Positions 6,003 through 14,510 of a DNA stretch of 64,000 nucleotides are shown here, piece by piece (the stretch's first letter is position 1; each line of letters starts with the position of its first letter). The DNA is taken from assembly GCF_030506285.1 (NCBI RefSeq), contig NZ_CP119422.1:3305001-3369000 (forward strand). Direction: 5' to 3'. The notes below the pieces were generated by a model. The model had not been told where the DNA came from. It did not search any database and was given only the letters and a program-made list of their open reading frames with translations. This stretch comes from Catalinimonas niigatensis (GTDB taxonomy: Bacteria; Bacteroidota; Bacteroidia; Cytophagales; Cyclobacteriaceae). A program made the position numbers and the translations under genes.

Positions 6003-8270
<2,268 letters not shown>

Positions 8271-8426: not shown

Positions 8427-8440
8427 CTCAGAGTTACCCA
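8427..8440. repeat. left part of REP interrupted by IS110 element
   Basis: These 14 nt (ctcagagttaccca) are one end of a 42-nt long-type REP. The other 28 nt are at 9673-9700 on the far side of the IS110-family element. The arms ctcagagtt (8427-8435) and aaccctgag (9692-9700) pair over 9 bp with one G-U. Confidence 0.8.
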
Positions 8441-8466
8441 TAGTGGAACTACCGCAACGAACTATG

Positions 8467-9471
8467 TTAAAAAGCAAGGTTGTTCTGTATTTTTTTATTT
8501 GAGGGACTTTGCTTTTCTTCATAGTTGTCAATATATTTTTTACTGCTTTTCACTACGGCAAATATCTGTCGGATGAGTTTATTACAAACGGCAATGAGTG
8601 CGACATAGCCAGGTTTTCCTGCTGCTCTAAGCCGCTGGTAGAGTGCTTTACAGGATGAGTTGTAACGAATAGCTGACCAACTTCCCATGAACAATAATGC
8701 CCTCAGGTGAGGATCACCTCCACGGTTCATTCCTCGATTCCACTTGACACTGGTCCCCGATTGATGATGGCAAGGGGCAATGCCTAAGAACTTAGCAAAT
8801 TGCTTGGGTGTATCAAACAATTGAAAACCACCTGTTGCTGTTATCAGAGCAGTCGAGATGCTTTTTCCGATACCTTTTACAGAAACAAGCAATTCTATCA
8901 AAGTGCTGAATTCTCGTTGAGCCAGTTGGCACAGGCTCTTTTCTAGTTCTTTGATTTTATCTTTGATGAATTGAAGCGCTTCTTTTGACACCTGCTCGGC
9001 CTGTTCATCAGAGCAGTAGCGCCAGGGCTGCTCCTTTCCAATGCATTCCAGTGCATGTTGCTGCTTCTTCAACTGCCTGATGACTACACGCTTATGCTGT
9101 ATTTTCAACAGAACGTCTGAGTGAGGTTTGAAGAGTTCAGGCTTTATGAGTTGTCCGTAACAAGATAGCATCTTAGCATCTTGCACATCTGTTTTGGTGA
9201 TGCTCAACTGCATCTTAGCAAAATAAGAAGCTTGTTTAGGATTGATGACAGAAACCTGATATCCTTCATGACATAATGTATAAGCCAGCAAACCACTGTA
9301 ATGGCCTGTAGCTTCCATGATCAGATGATCTTCTTGTTTATTGAGCAATGGCATCAATGTATCAATGCCTGCCACATCGTTAGTGAATTCTGCTACCTGA
9401 TAATCTTCCTCAAGTGGAAATGCTACTGTAAAAGTTTTCTTTGATACATCAAGGCCAATGAATCTTTTCAT
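8467..9471 (-). CDS. IS110-family transposase (DEDD/serine recombinase)
   Basis: A complete 334-residue transposase. The N-terminal RuvC-like DEDD domain has D8 (IGLDVSKK), E53 (IMEATGHY), D95 and D98 (TKTDVQDAK). A helical linker follows, then the Tnp_20 domain with VKGIGKSISTALI and HHQSGTSVKWNRG, in which S238-G239 occupies the place of the catalytic serine of IS621. IS110 proteins form a tetramer that recombines donor and target DNA under guidance of a bridge RNA from the element's noncoding end. No frameshift or stop is seen, so the element may be active. The ATG at 9471 begins the conserved first strand. Confidence 0.95.
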   Translation of the reverse strand: MKRFIGLDVSKKTFTVAFPLEEDYQVAEFTNDVAGIDTLMPLLNKQEDHLIMEATGHYSGLLAYTLCHEGYQVSVINPKQASYFAKMQLSITKTDVQDAKMLSCYGQLIKPELFKPHSDVLLKIQHKRVVIRQLKKQQHALECIGKEQPWRYCSDEQAEQVSKEALQFIKDKIKELEKSLCQLAQREFSTLIELLVSVKGIGKSISTALITATGGFQLFDTPKQFAKFLGIAPCHHQSGTSVKWNRGMNRGGDPHLRALLFMGSWSAIRYNSSCKALYQRLRAAGKPGYVALIAVCNKLIRQIFAVVKSSKKYIDNYEEKQSPSNKKIQNNLAF

Positions 9472-9472
9472 A

Positions 9473-9672
9473 ACTTTGAAATGTTTATTTTAACCTGATT
9501 GATGATTCCCTTACACTTGCGTTGTAAGCAGGCTCTTGGCCTAGAGAACTATCCAGCATGGGAATCGGTGGGCACAGCTACGAAACGTTGCGGACGGTAT
9601 TATACTACCAATGGAATTTCTGTATGACTGCGCCCATCCTAATTTACTCTTTTTTAGCTTTAAGTAAACTTA
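9473..9672 (-). ncRNA. candidate IS110 bridge RNA region
   Basis: The 200-nt noncoding leader between the element end and the transposase start is where IS110-group elements encode their bridge RNA. Read on the minus strand, it holds aattccattg (from 9618 to 9609), identical over 10 nt to the target flank immediately outside the element (9682 to 9673). This is what a left target guide should look like. Weaker candidate donor guides are tagttc (9551-9546), matching the element's other end (8451-8446), and cttac (9528-9524), complementary to the gtaag at the element start. Their order (target guide, then donor guides) agrees with IS621. I could not fold the RNA, and its ends are not determined. 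Confidence 0.55.
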
Positions 9673-9700
9673 CAATGGAATTGTCGCAGAGAACCCTGAG
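9673..9700. repeat. right part of REP interrupted by IS110 element
   Basis: These 28 nt complete the 42-nt long REP that begins at 8427-8440. They contain the loop sequence caatggaattgtcgcagag and the arm aaccctgag. The unit lies 19 nt past the RAYT stop codon, the usual position for a REP beside its transposase. Confidence 0.8.
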
Positions 9701-9718: not shown

Positions 9719-10279
9719 TTAGCCAATTGCTTTGTAGTGTGTGATGTAATCATTCTCTCTGTCCAACTCATAATAGGACGCACTGGAATGCGGATACTCC
9801 GCAAAATCTTCTACCAAACTCCATTTGCCACTGACAGGATTACGATGAATATAACTCATTTTTTGCTCTATCATCTTCTCATTAAAACATTTTCTGGCGT
9901 CAAATGACAGCCTGAACACCTGATGCTTCTTCCCTTTCTTCTTTTCATTGGCCTGTACTCCCGCTGTCAGGCGTTGTAGAACATGATGCTGTCCTAACTT
10001 TTTCAATTGACTTACAATAGCATAAGCCATAAACCGCTTCCCTTCACTAACCAATTGATTAAGGGATTTATCTGTATGGGTAGGAAATAGAAGACAGTGG
10101 AGATGGTTGGGCATGACGACATAAGCTAATATATGGCAGTGATCTTTCTTTAAGTGCTCAAACCAGGTGTATACTGCTGTATATGCTTGTGCTTGCTCAA
10201 AAAGGGGTAGCCATTGGTAGCAGGTGATGGTACAAAAGTAAACTTCATGGCTCTCCGTATGTAATCGGTGGGTTGACAA
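9719..10279 (-). CDS. REP-associated tyrosine transposase (RAYT, Y1_Tnp)
   Basis: A 186-residue single-domain HUH nuclease. The motif H59-L-H61 lies in VMPNHLHCLLF, and the conserved catalytic tyrosine Y143 is in SYIHRNPV, both hallmarks of RAYT/TnpA-REP proteins. RAYTs cut and rejoin single-stranded REP hairpins and are thought to spread them. The start is a TTG at 10279; no in-frame ATG lies upstream before the palindromes. The gene is flanked by REP units: a composite pair begins 36 nt upstream and another REP, split by the IS110 element, lies 19 nt downstream. This arrangement (REPtron) strongly supports the assignment. The frame is intact. Confidence 0.93.
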   Translation of the reverse strand: MSTHRLHTESHEVYFCTITCYQWLPLFEQAQAYTAVYTWFEHLKKDHCHILAYVVMPNHLHCLLFPTHTDKSLNQLVSEGKRFMAYAIVSQLKKLGQHHVLQRLTAGVQANEKKKGKKHQVFRLSFDARKCFNEKMIEQKMSYIHRNPVSGKWSLVEDFAEYPHSSASYYELDRENDYITHYKAIG

Positions 10280-10314: not shown

Positions 10315-10342
10315 CTCAGAGTCACCTGCAAGGGACTCTGAG
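10315..10342. repeat. REP palindrome, short form (A type)
   Basis: A perfect 9-bp inverted repeat ctcagagtc/gactctgag around a 10-nt loop (acctgcaagg). It is the first half of a composite pair with 10369-10396 (26-nt spacer), directly upstream of the RAYT start. Confidence 0.9.
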
Positions 10343-10368
10343 CTTTTGATGCAAATCCGCGATAGTAA

Positions 10369-10396
10369 CTCAGTGTCCTCTGCGAGTGACACTGAG
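10369..10396. repeat. REP palindrome, short form (B type)
   Basis: A perfect 9-bp inverted repeat ctcagtgtc/gacactgag around loop ctctgcgagt. The stem differs from the A type by paired changes (agtc/gact to tgtc/gaca), so pairing is preserved. Confidence 0.9.
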
Positions 10397-10445
10397 GAGG
10401 AGCAAGGTATAAATCTGTATTTATAGGTATTCTGAATTTTGTTTA

Positions 10446-11327
10446 CTACTTAAAATCTACCAGATCTGAATCTTTTTTTGGACTTAACTCATAGTAGGTT
10501 ACTTCATCATCGTGCTCGTACCACTTATAACGAGATTGTAAAAATCTAAAATTTTTCAATACCTCGTGCATTTCTGTTTGAAAGTCTTTGATGTTGCCGT
10601 TAGAAGCAAATGTTCCGCCAGTAAAAGTGATCCAGCGTGTCCCTTGGGCAGAACCTTCCACCTCAATATCATGCTCCCACATCAGCTCATCCACAATTCT
10701 TACATATTCTTTCCGCATTTTAGGGAATTCCTGAATTTGTATTCGCTTTACTTTTTGCTCAAGGGTAGAGGCTAATTCAACCTGTTCTTCTATTCTAGGA
10801 TCAGCATCCTGGATCAAGTTGGCCCAGGTAGCAAACAATACAAGCCCAAACTGAAGTGACTCTACTGAACCTCTATATTCTGAAAAATTAACCCCGTCAT
10901 CAATAGCCTTAATTTCCCTTTTTAGAGATGCGGTCAGTTGTTCTATCTCTTTTTCTTTGTCGCTTTTCTTTTTTTCAAGGACTGCTTTTTTACGTTCTTC
11001 CCTTTCCACCTTCTCAAGACTATCCATGTCAGTCAGCATATCATCGGCCATCCAGCGGTAGGGATCATCGGAAGATACGTTCTTAAGTGCATTTCTGGCT
11101 TCATAATATTGCCCTTTGTAAAAATGCGTTTCAGCTTCAGCATAATAATCCTTAGCATCTTTTTTAGTGATCCATCCGGCAATGACAAGATAAAAGATGA
11201 AAACGATCGCCCAGTAAAAAACAAACAACTTCTGGTTTACATCATAATGCCAACGAATGAAAAATCCAGGCTCTTTTAGGCCTACTATTAACAGGATAAT
11301 TAATAAAAGAAAAATGAAAGTCAACAT
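10446..11327 (-). CDS. hypothetical membrane protein with coiled coil
   Basis: About 293 residues from the ATG at 11327; an in-frame TTG at 11393 would give 315. The N-terminus MLTFIFLLLIILLIVGL is a membrane helix and a second follows (LFVFYWAIVFIFYLVIAGW). A charged region about residues 75-140 is rich in E/K and looks like a coiled coil (RKKAVLEKKKSDKEKEIEQ), followed by a soluble C-terminal domain. I do not recognise the family. The gene sits between two REP clusters in the accessory region, with no clear operon partner. It may be an exported or membrane-anchored periplasmic protein. Confidence 0.6.
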   Translation of the reverse strand: MLTFIFLLLIILLIVGLKEPGFFIRWHYDVNQKLFVFYWAIVFIFYLVIAGWITKKDAKDYYAEAETHFYKGQYYEARNALKNVSSDDPYRWMADDMLTDMDSLEKVEREERKKAVLEKKKSDKEKEIEQLTASLKREIKAIDDGVNFSEYRGSVESLQFGLVLFATWANLIQDADPRIEEQVELASTLEQKVKRIQIQEFPKMRKEYVRIVDELMWEHDIEVEGSAQGTRWITFTGGTFASNGNIKDFQTEMHEVLKNFRFLQSRYKWYEHDDEVTYYELSPKKDSDLVDFK

Positions 11328-11540
11328 GATGGCTAGATATTTTATAAGTAAATCAGCAGGAATTAATATTAATCCAGCCTCATTTTTTAACAAAGATAAT
11401 TAAATCCTGACAAATTTACATAAACTATATTTTCACTGTAATGATCTCATCCCATTGGTTAGTATTTCGCTACGATAATTAATTCTGTGTCTCCCTTAGA
11501 TAACACCTTAAAATAGTTCTATAAAATGTTCTTGTCCCCC

Positions 11541-11568
11541 CTCAGAGTCACCTGCAAGGGACTCTGAG
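11541..11568. repeat. REP palindrome, short form (A type)
   Basis: Identical to the unit at 10315-10342 in stem (ctcagagtc/gactctgag) and loop. It is followed after 26 nt by a long B-type REP, the same spacing as the first pair. Confidence 0.9.
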
Positions 11569-11594
11569 CATCTGGAAAGTAAAATTTGTCATAA

Positions 11595-11636
11595 TTCAGT
11601 GTACTCTGCAACAATTCCATTGCGGGTGACACTGAG
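11595..11636. repeat. REP palindrome, long form (B type)
   Basis: A 42-nt unit with arms ttcagtgta/gacactgag (imperfect at both ends). Its 24-nt loop contains caattccattgcgggt, i.e. 14 nt more than the short form. Confidence 0.85.
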
Positions 11637-11671
11637 TGTGTGGGAACCACTAATTAATTATTTATTCCCTC

Positions 11672-11699
11672 CTCAGAGTCCTCTGCGAGTGACTCTGAG
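11672..11699. repeat. REP palindrome, short hybrid form
   Basis: An A-type stem (ctcagagtc/gactctgag) carrying the B-type loop ctctgcgagt. It is a natural recombinant or intermediate between the two types. Confidence 0.9.
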
Positions 11700-11769
11700 G
11701 GGAAACTCCCTCAACTTAGTACTTAGCATTCCATAGGCATGGTTTGTCAACCTAAACTGAAGTACCTGC

Positions 11770-11951
11770 TCCTACCAGGGATACTTATAAAATGAGGGGA
11801 GGTATGATCTTCCCCACCAGGGATGGCTGCGAAAGACTGTTCGCTTGTACCTGTCCCTGGCAGGGATGGGTATTTCAGATTGTCATGTTGCTTACGTCCC
11901 TATCAGGGAAAGTAATAAAGCCCAGTCTTTTGTTCATTTCCCTTAGCGGGA
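11770..11951. repeat. array of five small palindromes, 42-43 nt period
   Basis: Five copies of a 12-13-nt palindromic core close to tccctANcaggga begin at 11770, 11811, 11854, 11897 and 11939. Their ggga ends are 42, 43, 43 and 42 nt apart, while the intervening sequences are unrelated. A possible degenerate sixth unit (ttccataggcatgg) lies one period upstream at 11729. A 42-nt period is four helical turns, so the palindromes face the same side of the DNA. The repeat core is far shorter and more variable than a CRISPR repeat. The function is unknown. The array occupies the gap between two REP clusters and the gene at 12125. Confidence 0.7.
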
Positions 11952-12124
11952 TACATGCTCCAGCGCGTCTTTTTGTTCTTGTATCTGCTTCTGAAATAAT
12001 GAAAAGGCATACCCTACATAACAATCTCTACCTCATCCATTAAACTTACCTGTGTATGTTTACTTGTGATCAGTATGATGATCCTCTTGTGAATCTCTTT
12101 TATTTTCATCATAAAAAAAATTGT

Positions 12125-12763
12125 ATGAGAAAGAGTATTTACAAAGAGTTGGAAAGTAATCGTCAGGTGGTGGCAGGAGCCTTAGCCAGTCCTGAAATCA
12201 TTAGAGTGATGTCTCCTTTGGGCTACGACCGTAAGGAAATCAACTTTGGCAACAACCTTTTGGCCAAAATGGCGAGCCAGCAGGATGAGCGTGAGCATGA
12301 AGAGAACCTTCAGAAGATGAGCACCCAAAAGCTACGGGGGGCATACAAAGAAGCGAATTCACTTTATATGAACCATCTGAAGTTTGCCCGCCTGCTTTTC
12401 GCGCCCCAGAGCCAGAGCTGGAATGATATGAAATTGGGCGGTAAACGCAGTCAAAACATGGCAGGCTGGTTGATGCAGGTTAAGGCTTTTTATAAGTATG
12501 CCATCCCTTTAGCGGATACATTTGCCCAACGGGGTATCACTGCCGAAGAATTAGGCCAGGCAGAAGCGATGATAGAGGCAGTAGGCGATGCCCGGATACA
12601 ACAAAACCAGAGCAAAAGCCGCAAGCAGGTTGCCAAAGAGCGTCGCGACCAGGAGCGAAAGGAAATGCAGCGGTGGATGAGCAAATTTATCAAAGCTGCC
12701 CGCTATGCATTTGACGAAGACAAGCAGCAACTGGAAGCGCTGGGTATTGTAGTACCTTCTTAG
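12125..12763 (+). CDS. hypothetical helical protein
   Basis: About 212 residues from the ATG at 12125 (MRKSIYKELESNRQ); the longer reading from 12056 adds an implausible tail. The protein is almost wholly helical and highly charged, with KSRKQVAKERRDQERKEMQRW near residues 170-190 and no signal peptide, so it is probably cytoplasmic. I do not recognise a domain with certainty. It is bracketed by the 42-nt-period palindrome array upstream and a REP pair 13 nt downstream, and a terminator follows at 12918. Its codon use looks like that of its neighbours. Confidence 0.65.
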   Translation: MRKSIYKELESNRQVVAGALASPEIIRVMSPLGYDRKEINFGNNLLAKMASQQDEREHEENLQKMSTQKLRGAYKEANSLYMNHLKFARLLFAPQSQSWNDMKLGGKRSQNMAGWLMQVKAFYKYAIPLADTFAQRGITAEELGQAEAMIEAVGDARIQQNQSKSRKQVAKERRDQERKEMQRWMSKFIKAARYAFDEDKQQLEALGIVVPS

Positions 12764-12775
12764 GGAATGTTCCTC

Positions 12776-12815
12776 CTCAGAGTCCCCGCGGCGACCACTT
12801 GCAGGTGACTCTGAG
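12776..12815. repeat. REP palindrome, long A-type variant (40 nt)
   Basis: Arms ctcagagtc/gactctgag with a 22-nt loop (cccgcggcgaccacttgcaggt) unlike the other loops. It starts 13 nt after the stop of the 12125 gene and pairs with the next REP over a 14-nt spacer. Confidence 0.85.
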
Positions 12816-12829
12816 ATCCTTGCAGGAAA

Positions 12830-12871
12830 CTCAGTGTCCTCTGCGCCAATTCCATTGCGGGTGACACTGAG
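12830..12871. repeat. REP palindrome, long form (B type)
   Basis: A 42-nt unit with perfect arms ctcagtgtc/gacactgag and a 24-nt loop with gcg-ccaattccatt-gcg. It is the best intact example of the long form and the reference used to reconstruct the interrupted unit at 8427/9700. Confidence 0.9.
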
Positions 12872-12917
12872 GAAGGGTACATTGAAGATTAAAAATTAGG
12901 ATTATTGGGTTTGACAG

Positions 12918-12956
12918 AAGGGTGTGTTTCTGAGAGAATCGGAAAGCACCCTTTTC
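12918..12956 (+). terminator. probable terminator after the 12125 gene
   Basis: A stem aagggtg/caccctt with an inner gtttc/gaaa helix, followed by ttttctattt. The loop is longer than usual. Confidence 0.5.
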
Positions 12957-13108
12957 TATTTACTCTCCCTTTAAACCTCAAAACCTGATGGGCGATGTAA
13001 TAGACACGCCATGCAAACACGCGTGTGGAGCATCAGGTCATTGAAATCGATCCATGATTTTTCGCTAATTTATTAAAAAAAATATATGCCTAATCTAAAC
13101 TAAATATA

Positions 13109-13116
13109 TATCTTTG
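13109..13116 (+). promoter_or_regulatory. possible Bacteroidota -7 box
   Basis: tatctttg fits TAnnTTTG, about 110 nt before the metalloprotease lipoprotein gene. No convincing -33 TTG is seen at the right distance, so this is tentative. Confidence 0.3.
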
Positions 13117-13225
13117 AAAGAATAGATTAAATAAAATAAGCGTTTAAGCGCAATGATTTCACTAAAATACAACTCATTTTTACAACCTACTTATATTTAT
13201 TTTTTACAAACTAATAAACTACGCA

Positions 13226-14392
13226 ATGAAACTTTTCAGACTTTTACCGGCAATTCTTGCCTTTTCTTTTATCCTGCTGACAGCATGTGAAAAGGAGCTT
13301 GATGGTACGCTTAATCCATCCACTTCGGACATGCTTTCTGCTGAAGCAACTGAAAGACTGGGACAGTCGGATTTTTCTTTTCCTGATGGACTTGAAAAAA
13401 GACTAGAGGCCCCTTCCTTATTATTACACACCCATCCTGAATACAGAGACATGGTTCTCAGGGCTTTGGGGGCTATTGAACCTACCCCTTGTGATAGTAA
13501 TACACCTTTAAATCAGTGGCTGAGCCAGGAACTTTCAGACTGGAATGCAGAAATGAGGTTTTATGCAAATGCTACAGCTATGTATGATTTGCCCACCTAT
13601 GATGCGCTGGTATTTGAAAACAGTTCTAAGAATCAGTACTTCGGCCCAGAGGGAGAATACACCAAGCCCCTAACTAAGGCATTCAAGGATTTACAGCGTT
13701 TCTGGGATATTCAATCAGATGACATTGTACTGGTTGCTATGCATGGTAATATGTTGCTTGATAGAGATAAATTGCTCAGAACTTATGAGGCTGCCTTTGG
13801 TTTATCCCCTGCCGATGCTGCCTATTATGCTGACCTTGTATTACTTTTACTGGAAACGTACCCTCAATACAGAAATGGGAATCACCCTATCTTTACTTTC
13901 AATGCTTTTGCTTTGGAAGGGTTTAACTATCCGCCCTATGCTAATATTCCAGACAAGATTGTCATGGGTGATGGTATCATGGAAGCTTATACTGCTCTCG
14001 GCTATGATGATGTAGCTCCTCAGGCCATACTGGCCCATGAATTCGGGCATCATATTCAATTTCAACTAGACTTGTTCGAGGAGGTAAGTAGTCCTGAAGC
14101 TACCCGCAGAACTGAACTTATGGCTGATGCTTATGCGGCTTACTATCTCTCCCATGCCCGAGGGGCCAGCATGCAATGGAAAAGGGTACAGCAATTTCTT
14201 GAGGTATTTTTTAATATTGGGGATTGTGGGTTTACCAGTAATGGTCACCATGGTACACATACGCAAAGAATGGCTGCTGCTGAATGGGGTTATCAACTTG
14301 CCGATAATGCTCAGAAACAAGGACACATTCTGAGCAGCCAGGAATTTGCCCAGCTTTTTGATGCCCAATTACCTGAGCTGGTCTTACTTTAA
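13226..14392 (+). CDS. zinc metalloprotease-like lipoprotein
   Basis: A 388-residue lipoprotein: signal peptide with lipobox LLTAC (Cys21), so it is anchored in the outer or inner membrane after export. The zinc-binding HEFGH motif is at residues 270-274 (ILAHEFGHHIQ), and the likely third ligand is Glu296 in TELMADAYAAYY. This HExxH plus ExxAD pattern is that of gluzincin-type peptidases (M48-like or the neutral zinc metallopeptidase group). A His-rich GHHGTHTQRM segment follows near residue 340. Substrate unknown. The gene is monocistronic, with a terminator directly after it and a -7-like box about 110 nt upstream. Confidence 0.75.
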   Translation: MKLFRLLPAILAFSFILLTACEKELDGTLNPSTSDMLSAEATERLGQSDFSFPDGLEKRLEAPSLLLHTHPEYRDMVLRALGAIEPTPCDSNTPLNQWLSQELSDWNAEMRFYANATAMYDLPTYDALVFENSSKNQYFGPEGEYTKPLTKAFKDLQRFWDIQSDDIVLVAMHGNMLLDRDKLLRTYEAAFGLSPADAAYYADLVLLLLETYPQYRNGNHPIFTFNAFALEGFNYPPYANIPDKIVMGDGIMEAYTALGYDDVAPQAILAHEFGHHIQFQLDLFEEVSSPEATRRTELMADAYAAYYLSHARGASMQWKRVQQFLEVFFNIGDCGFTSNGHHGTHTQRMAAAEWGYQLADNAQKQGHILSSQEFAQLFDAQLPELVLL

Positions 14393-14426
14393 CAGCTAAG
14401 TTTTTTAACTCACTACTTAGAACATA

Positions 14427-14460
14427 AATCACCCCTAATTATGCAGGGGTGATTATTTTT
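14427..14460 (+). terminator. terminator of the metalloprotease gene
   Basis: A perfect 10-bp stem aatcacccct/aggggtgatt (14427-14436, 14445-14454) followed by attttttt, 35 nt after the stop. Confidence 0.85.
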
Positions 14461-14468
14461 TTAACTCT

Positions 14469-14510
14469 ATCCGTGTCCTCTGCGCCAATTCCATTGCGGG
14501 TGACACGGAG
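14469..14510. repeat. REP palindrome, long form with altered stem
   Basis: A 42-nt unit with the same 24-nt loop as 12830-12871. The stem is ccgtgtc/gacacgg: both arms changed together compared with cagtgtc/gacactg, a compensatory pair of changes. Confidence 0.85.

What the first reader, a model, noticed from the sequence alone, without database searches (positions are those of the whole stretch)
8427..9700. IS110-family element inserted precisely inside a REP palindrome
Joining 8440 directly to 9673 rebuilds a 42-nt REP whose length equals the intact long REPs at 12830-12871 and 14469-14510, with 36/42 identity to the former on the opposite strand. The two outer arms pair over 9 bp with one G-U. 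This fixes the element at 1,232 bp with no target duplication. IS621 of E. coli, also IS110 family, is known to enter REP sequences. Seeing the same preference in a Bacteroidota genome with unrelated REPs suggests that REP hairpins are a recurrent niche for this family.
Basis: partly seen in the sequence, partly recalled or inferred. Interest (0 to 1): 0.8.

Follow-up and report, generated by a model that had tools for sequence, protein, structure and literature searches.

The report
RNA-guided jumping gene in a palindrome

Summary
The insertion is real, but one proposed end is wrong. An IS110-family element lies inside a RAYT-associated palindrome. A second copy, identical over 1,218 bp, lies elsewhere in the genome in the same palindrome family, at the same position and orientation. 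But the two copies already differ at 4 of the last 11 bases of the proposed element and nowhere else in it, and relatives end at an AGTTC motif further in. I place the element at 8456..9673. The rebuilt target is then 56 nt with two 14-nt inner units; a vacant palindrome with tandem 14-nt units exists.

The element's 5' end folds like a bridge RNA. Its target guides (AATTCCATTG, CCGCAA) spell the palindrome's inner unit; all four exact genome matches to that 13-nt target lie in these palindromes. So the choice of palindrome is most likely written in a guide RNA. Distant relatives carry other guides; in one genome all five copies scored sit in a different palindromic repeat.

REP-targeting IS110 elements and bridge RNAs are published: a new member of a known kind.

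The parts
8456..9673 (-). IS110-family element, 1,218 bp including one copy of the core
   Evidence: identical in two genome copies; boundary scan; relatives' right-end motif
8467..9471 (-). recombinase gene, 334 aa, DEDD and serine motifs (D8, E53, D95, D98, S238)
9472..9673 (-). left non-coding end, predicted bridge RNA (5' hairpin 9670-9641, target loop 9639-9567, donor loop 9566-9504)
   Evidence: fold, z -3.19, 1 of 200 shuffles as stable; donor loop covariation
9609..9618 (-). left target guide AATTCCATTG
9588..9593 (-). right target guide CCGCAA, pairs with TTGCGG
9546..9552 (-). left donor guide ATAGTTC (does not extend over the core)
9520..9528 (-). right donor guide CTTACAACG, pairs with the circle junction CGTTG|TAAG
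   Evidence: 54 of 20,000 shuffles reach 9 nt on one strand
9674..9700 (-). left half of the interrupted palindrome, ending in the core
8427..8455 (-). right half of the interrupted palindrome, with the second inner unit
9719..10279 (-). RAYT gene (REP-associated tyrosine transposase)
   Evidence: NF047646 82.9 bits, cut-off 80
10315..10342 (+). intact palindrome upstream of the RAYT gene
10369..10396 (+). intact 28-nt palindrome without inner unit
11541..11568 (+). intact palindrome
11595..11636 (+). intact 42-nt palindrome with the full 13-nt target, unoccupied
11672..11699 (+). intact 28-nt palindrome
12776..12815 (+). intact palindrome
12830..12871 (+). intact 42-nt palindrome with the full 13-nt target, unoccupied
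14469..14510 (+). intact 42-nt palindrome with the full 13-nt target, unoccupied

Best explanation
A 1,218-bp IS110-family element whose left end encodes a two-loop bridge RNA. The target loop spells the inner unit of a RAYT-associated palindrome family (AATTCCATTGCGG); the donor loop matches the junction of the excised circle. The recombinase exchanges circle and target strands at a shared TTG, so only a 2-3 bp core appears on both sides. Shown by sequence: two identical copies in the same palindrome family at the same position and orientation, the guide matches, the fold, and the donor end shared with relatives. Inferred: circle, RNA expression, guide-directed recombination, and a promoter formed at the circle junction.
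For: Two copies identical over 1,218 bp in separate palindromes. Guide matches of 10 nt (left target), 6 nt (right target) and 9 nt (right donor) at the proposed ends; 1 of 5,000 dinucleotide shuffles reaches that total for that pair of ends. The 13-nt target occurs 4 times in 7.13 Mb, all four in these palindromes; reversed control 1. Fold z -3.19; 13 of 15 consensus donor-loop pairs change on both sides in at least one of 13 sequences. Right-end AGTTC in 24 of 25 loci and an AGTTC in the upstream non-coding stretch in 21 of 25. A vacant palindrome with tandem 14-nt units exists. A distant relative: 5 of 5 scored copies in another palindromic repeat whose letters are in its own left end. Nearest solved proteins by sequence: ISCro4 and IS621 recombinases.
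Against: The left donor guide misses the core (ATAGTTC then UC against GT), while core pairing in all four guides is described for IS621 (PMC11208160). If the core is TT, the two bases beside it in the donor loop fit the donor better than the target, which in IS621 disfavours exchange (PMC11208158). Both copies sit in two-unit palindromes while three one-unit palindromes with the full target are empty. The boundary scan is not sharp: six off-diagonal pairs score 28-29 against 30, and no null was run for the best over all pairs. RNAalifold recovered the donor loop only; the target loop rests on single-sequence folds. No empty-site strain and no close relative were found.
Confidence: 0.85

Rival explanations
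1. One reading: the element is 8441..9672 (1,232 bp) in a one-unit 42-nt palindrome.
For: The join gives exactly 42 nt with 36/42 identity, and the arms pair.
Against: Copies A and B differ at 4 of the last 11 bases of this element and at none of the other 1,221; in A those bases form a paired palindrome unit with compensating changes (TAGT with ACTA); guide score 18 against 28-30; relatives end at AGTTCNTT.
Confidence: 0.04
2. The element carries one inner unit at its own left end and inserts at the TGCG before the inner unit of a normal 42-nt palindrome.
For: Both copies have the same left unit; 42-nt palindromes are the commoner long form in this genome.
Against: Guide score 11, no donor guide spanning that junction; a palindrome with the same CTCTGCGACAAT start exists elsewhere without the element; a vacant multi-unit palindrome exists.
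Confidence: 0.04
3. The recombinase, or a host factor, recognises the hairpin or cruciform of the palindrome, and the guide matches are secondary.
For: Targets fold as stems with small hairpins; other palindromic sites in G137; both copies are in the more elaborate two-unit form.
Against: The left end contains the target letters of both strands in the order expected for a bridge RNA; other palindromes of the family that lack the 13-nt target are not occupied in this genome; IS621 is known to work from an RNA guide (PMC11208160, passages).
Confidence: 0.07

Closest known systems
IS621 of E. coli (IS110 family, REP-targeting, bridge RNA)
   Same: Recombinase family (E 2e-28), long non-coding end upstream of the gene, two-loop RNA fold, guides spelling a REP sequence, no target duplication beyond a core (PMC11208160 and PMC11208158, passages)
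   Different: Unrelated palindrome, core in TTG instead of CT, left donor guide without core pairing, possible Bacteroidota-type instead of sigma-70 promoter at the circle junction
ISPpu9, ISPpu10, ISPa11, ISRm19 (IS110-family elements in REPs)
   Same: All listed copies lie in REPs; 2-bp direct repeats for ISPpu9 and ISPpu10 (PMC1525189, abstract and passages)
   Different: Proteobacterial hosts; ISPa11 belongs to the IS1111 kind with its RNA region downstream of the gene (PMC11187229, passages)
seekRNA elements such as ISEc21 (IS110) and ISEc11 (IS1111)
   Same: Non-coding end carries matches to both target strands; natural re-targeting described (PMC11187229, passages)
   Different: Other targets and hosts
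RAYT gene with flanking repeats (REPtron or TIRtron)
   Same: RAYT gene flanked by palindromes; the element sits in one of them (PMC2817692 and PMC3733652, passages)
   Different: Few copies found here, no GTAG or CGTC tag seen by eye, length varies by a 14-nt inner unit

Membership tests
IS110 family | RuvC-like DEDD domain plus Transposase_20 domain with a conserved serine | tested here: met
   PF01548 65 bits (cut-off 29), PF02371 78.6 bits (21.3); NF033542 191.4 bits; motifs located and aligned with IS621
IS110 family | No target duplication beyond a short core | tested here: met
   Two copies compared; only TTG is shared by both edges
IS110 family | No terminal inverted repeats | tested here: inconclusive
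   No dedicated test; one search looked only for repeats of 16 nt or more and showed the 25 longest of 38 inverted pairs
IS110 kind rather than IS1111 kind | Longer non-coding end upstream of the gene | tested here: met
   202 nt upstream, 11 nt downstream with the corrected ends
Bridge RNA elements | Two internal-loop hairpins with guides to target and donor | tested here: met
   Fold, guides, donor-loop covariation; target loop from single-sequence folds only
Bridge RNA elements | Core included in all four guide pairings | tested here: not met
   Included in three; the left donor guide reads ATAGTTC then UC against GT
Bridge RNA elements | RNA made and bound by the recombinase; circular form made | not testable with these tools
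   Needs experiments
REP-targeting insertion sequences | Copies interrupt REPs at one position | tested here: met
   2 of 2 copies, same position and orientation
REP sequences | Usually more than 100 copies per genome; most have a GTAG or CGTC tag | tested here: not met
   16 rows, 15 places, at E<=1 with 150 of 800 candidates scored; no tag seen by eye. Short, palindromic and RAYT-linked, so REP-like

The most novel reading that the evidence does not exclude
In class Bacteroidia a subgroup of IS110 elements keeps one donor end (an AGTTC right end) while its target guides have been rewritten between unrelated structured repeats: a RAYT palindrome here, a CGTC-type palindrome in another lineage, perhaps integron attC-like sites in others. 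Their two ends each carry half of a Bacteroidota-type promoter that is complete only in the excised circle, so the guide RNA would be made chiefly from the circle. Guide RNAs would then repeatedly adapt to whichever multi-copy repeat a host offers.
Probability: 0.5. Interest if true: 0.6.

Novelty: new member of a known kind. Interest (0 to 1): 0.45.

Why it matters
It gives a case, far from the proteobacterial elements studied so far, in which an IS110 element's choice of a RAYT-linked palindrome can be read off a predicted guide RNA. It also shows that element ends must be set from several copies and relatives, not from a rebuilt repeat that looks right. The relatives offer natural examples of different guides on a shared donor end.

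Tried and rejected
Element carrying the inner unit at its left end: rejected. A 14-bp target duplication: rejected because both copies have A before one inner unit and G before the other. Rfam at E<=10: two weak matches far below the gathering scores, no bridge RNA. Close relatives in genome contigs: 36 pattern stretches, none encoding a relative. Palindrome pattern in viral contigs: 0. A palindrome pattern in genome contigs: 4 stretches, which on inspection lack the outer arms of this palindrome. Long palindrome in relatives: 1 of 59 genomes, the own one (exact pattern only). Plasmid tblastn: 3,658 records, all below 60% identity.

Selection: the 13 left ends were chosen because I could recognise their start, partly by the TAAGTTT-like letters, so the left-end promoter count is not independent of the choice; one copy per genome was used. 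In one search I examined 25 loci; L079 lacked a downstream AGTTC, and L070, L080, L078 and L012 an upstream one. In one search I inspected the flanks of 21 loci: stems of 9-15 nt at the five G137 copies (L083 only 9), one of 8 nt at L090, three of 7 nt, none at the other 12, L064 included. The attC-like reading of GTT sites is by eye only. In one search no more than 5 candidates per genome were scored (G137: 5 of 32; G288: 5 of 10), so copy counts there are lower bounds.

Searches behind the statement that I found no IS110 element in a Bacteroidota RAYT palindrome in print; the library lacks most subscription journals. One search, a search for the G137 repeat letters, listed only papers on the other term.

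Full report
Observation. The window holds an IS110-family recombinase gene on the minus strand at 8467-9471 with palindrome halves on both sides. The palindrome family is real: 6 window matches and none in 100 shuffles; 11 sites in the 7.13 Mb genome, none for the reversed control. A covariance model of seven members gives 16 rows, 15 places, at E<=1 with 150 of 800 candidates scored; eight of the places are in the window at 10315-14510, and one is the right flank of copy B. A RAYT gene lies at 9719-10279 (one of six genome matches, three over the cut-off). The element occupies the palindrome that ends 18 nt beyond the RAYT stop codon.

Second copy. The genome has two copies, A (window) and B (G000:C1:5204029-5205307), identical over 1,218 bp, at the same position and orientation in this palindrome family. 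Six further IS110 genes of two other kinds are present at 27-30% identity.

Ends. On the recombinase strand both copies run CAATTCCATTG|TAAG...CATAGTTCGTTGCGG, then A continues TAGTTCCACTATGGGTAACTCTGAGG and B CAATTCCATTGCGGGTGACTCTGAGG. In A the changed letters still pair (TAGT with ACTA in place of CAAT with ATTG), as in a palindrome unit that evolved as one. Relatives have AGTTC downstream of the gene in 24 of 25 loci, AGTTCNTT in 16 of these. I place the element at 8456..9673.

Target. The rebuilt targets of A and B are 56 nt; with DNA parameters they fold as an outer stem with two small hairpins. A vacant palindrome at G000:C1:5850802 holds 2.7 perfect copies of a 14-nt unit that differs from the guide-matched one at one position, so multi-unit targets are natural. 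Three one-unit palindromes with the whole 13-nt target are unoccupied, which the model does not explain.

Mechanism. The 201 nt upstream of the gene fold into a 5' hairpin and two internal-loop hairpins (z -3.19); by eye most of the 12 relatives' single-sequence folds look alike. RNAalifold on the 13 sequences recovers the donor loop, 13 of 15 pairs with both-side changes, and not the target loop. Guides: AATTCCATTG and CCGCAA (target), ATAGTTC and CTTACAACG (donor). For the proposed ends, 1 of 5,000 shuffles reaches the guide total; no null was run for the best over all pairs. The right target guide with its next two bases, CCGCAACG, is complementary to the right junction CGTTGCGG, which resembles the handshake guides of IS621 (PMC11208158, passages). 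Against: the left donor guide misses the core, and if the core is TT the bases beside it in the donor loop fit the donor rather than the target.

Promoter. IS621 rebuilds a promoter across its circle junction (PMC11208160, passages). Here 10 of 13 right ends have TTG exactly 14 nt before AGTTC (TTTG in 7), and left ends begin with TAnnTTTG in 6 of 13 and TAnnYTTR in 11 of 13; shuffle means 0.28, 0.09 and 0.29. TTTG near -33 and TAnnTTTG at -7 are the Bacteroides boxes; in Flavobacterium johnsoniae only the -7 box was confirmed (PMC7366714, passages). The sequences are related and the left ends were picked partly by eye for such letters, so this is suggestive only. The window element itself has CTTG-N20-TAAGTTTA, one mismatch in each box.

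Relatives. In G137 all 5 scored copies (of 32 first-look candidates) sit at CGTCAT|TGCGAGGAGG, a repeat with 222 exact copies of GTCATTGCGAGGAGG and none for the control. The strings CGTCATTG and TTCGCAATG each occur once in the 1,500 nt upstream of that gene. CGTC-tagged REPs are reported from Bacteroidetes among others (PMC3733652, abstract and passages); that this repeat belongs to them is my inference from its CGTC start. L064 in G174 has the same strings and a CGTCAT|TGCG site; that genome has 16 copies of GTCATTGCGAGG, the own genome 1 with 1 in the control. Other relatives end at GTT-type flanks that look like attC sites (by eye, not tested).

Known or new. IS110 elements in REPs are published (PMC1525189; IS621 by Choi 2003, seen only as a citation in papers read). 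Bridge and seek RNAs are published (PMC11208160, PMC11187229). I found no report of an IS110 element in a Bacteroidota RAYT palindrome in searches.

Noticed in passing
L006, L007, L008 (own genome): Another IS110 kind, three copies; the flanks of L007 and L008, not L006, look like an integron attC site (AACAGTGC ... GCCTGCAT ... CGTTAG).
   Followed up: partly
L071, L077, L082, L084, L086 (genome G288): Five copies of a distant relative within about 28 kb, each followed by GTTA, as if at successive cassette sites of an integron.
   Followed up: partly
L096 1494-1531 (G000:C1 near 5850802): A palindrome with a perfect tandem of a 14-nt inner unit (2.7 copies): palindromes of this family grow in steps of 14 nt (28, 42, 56 and more).
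   Followed up: yes
L009, L010, L011 (own genome): A third IS110 kind, three copies, two of them about 4 kb apart in opposite orientation.
   Followed up: no
window 6009-8270: Open frame of 753 aa beside the element that looks like a catalase-peroxidase (recalled from its sequence, no database call).
   Followed up: no
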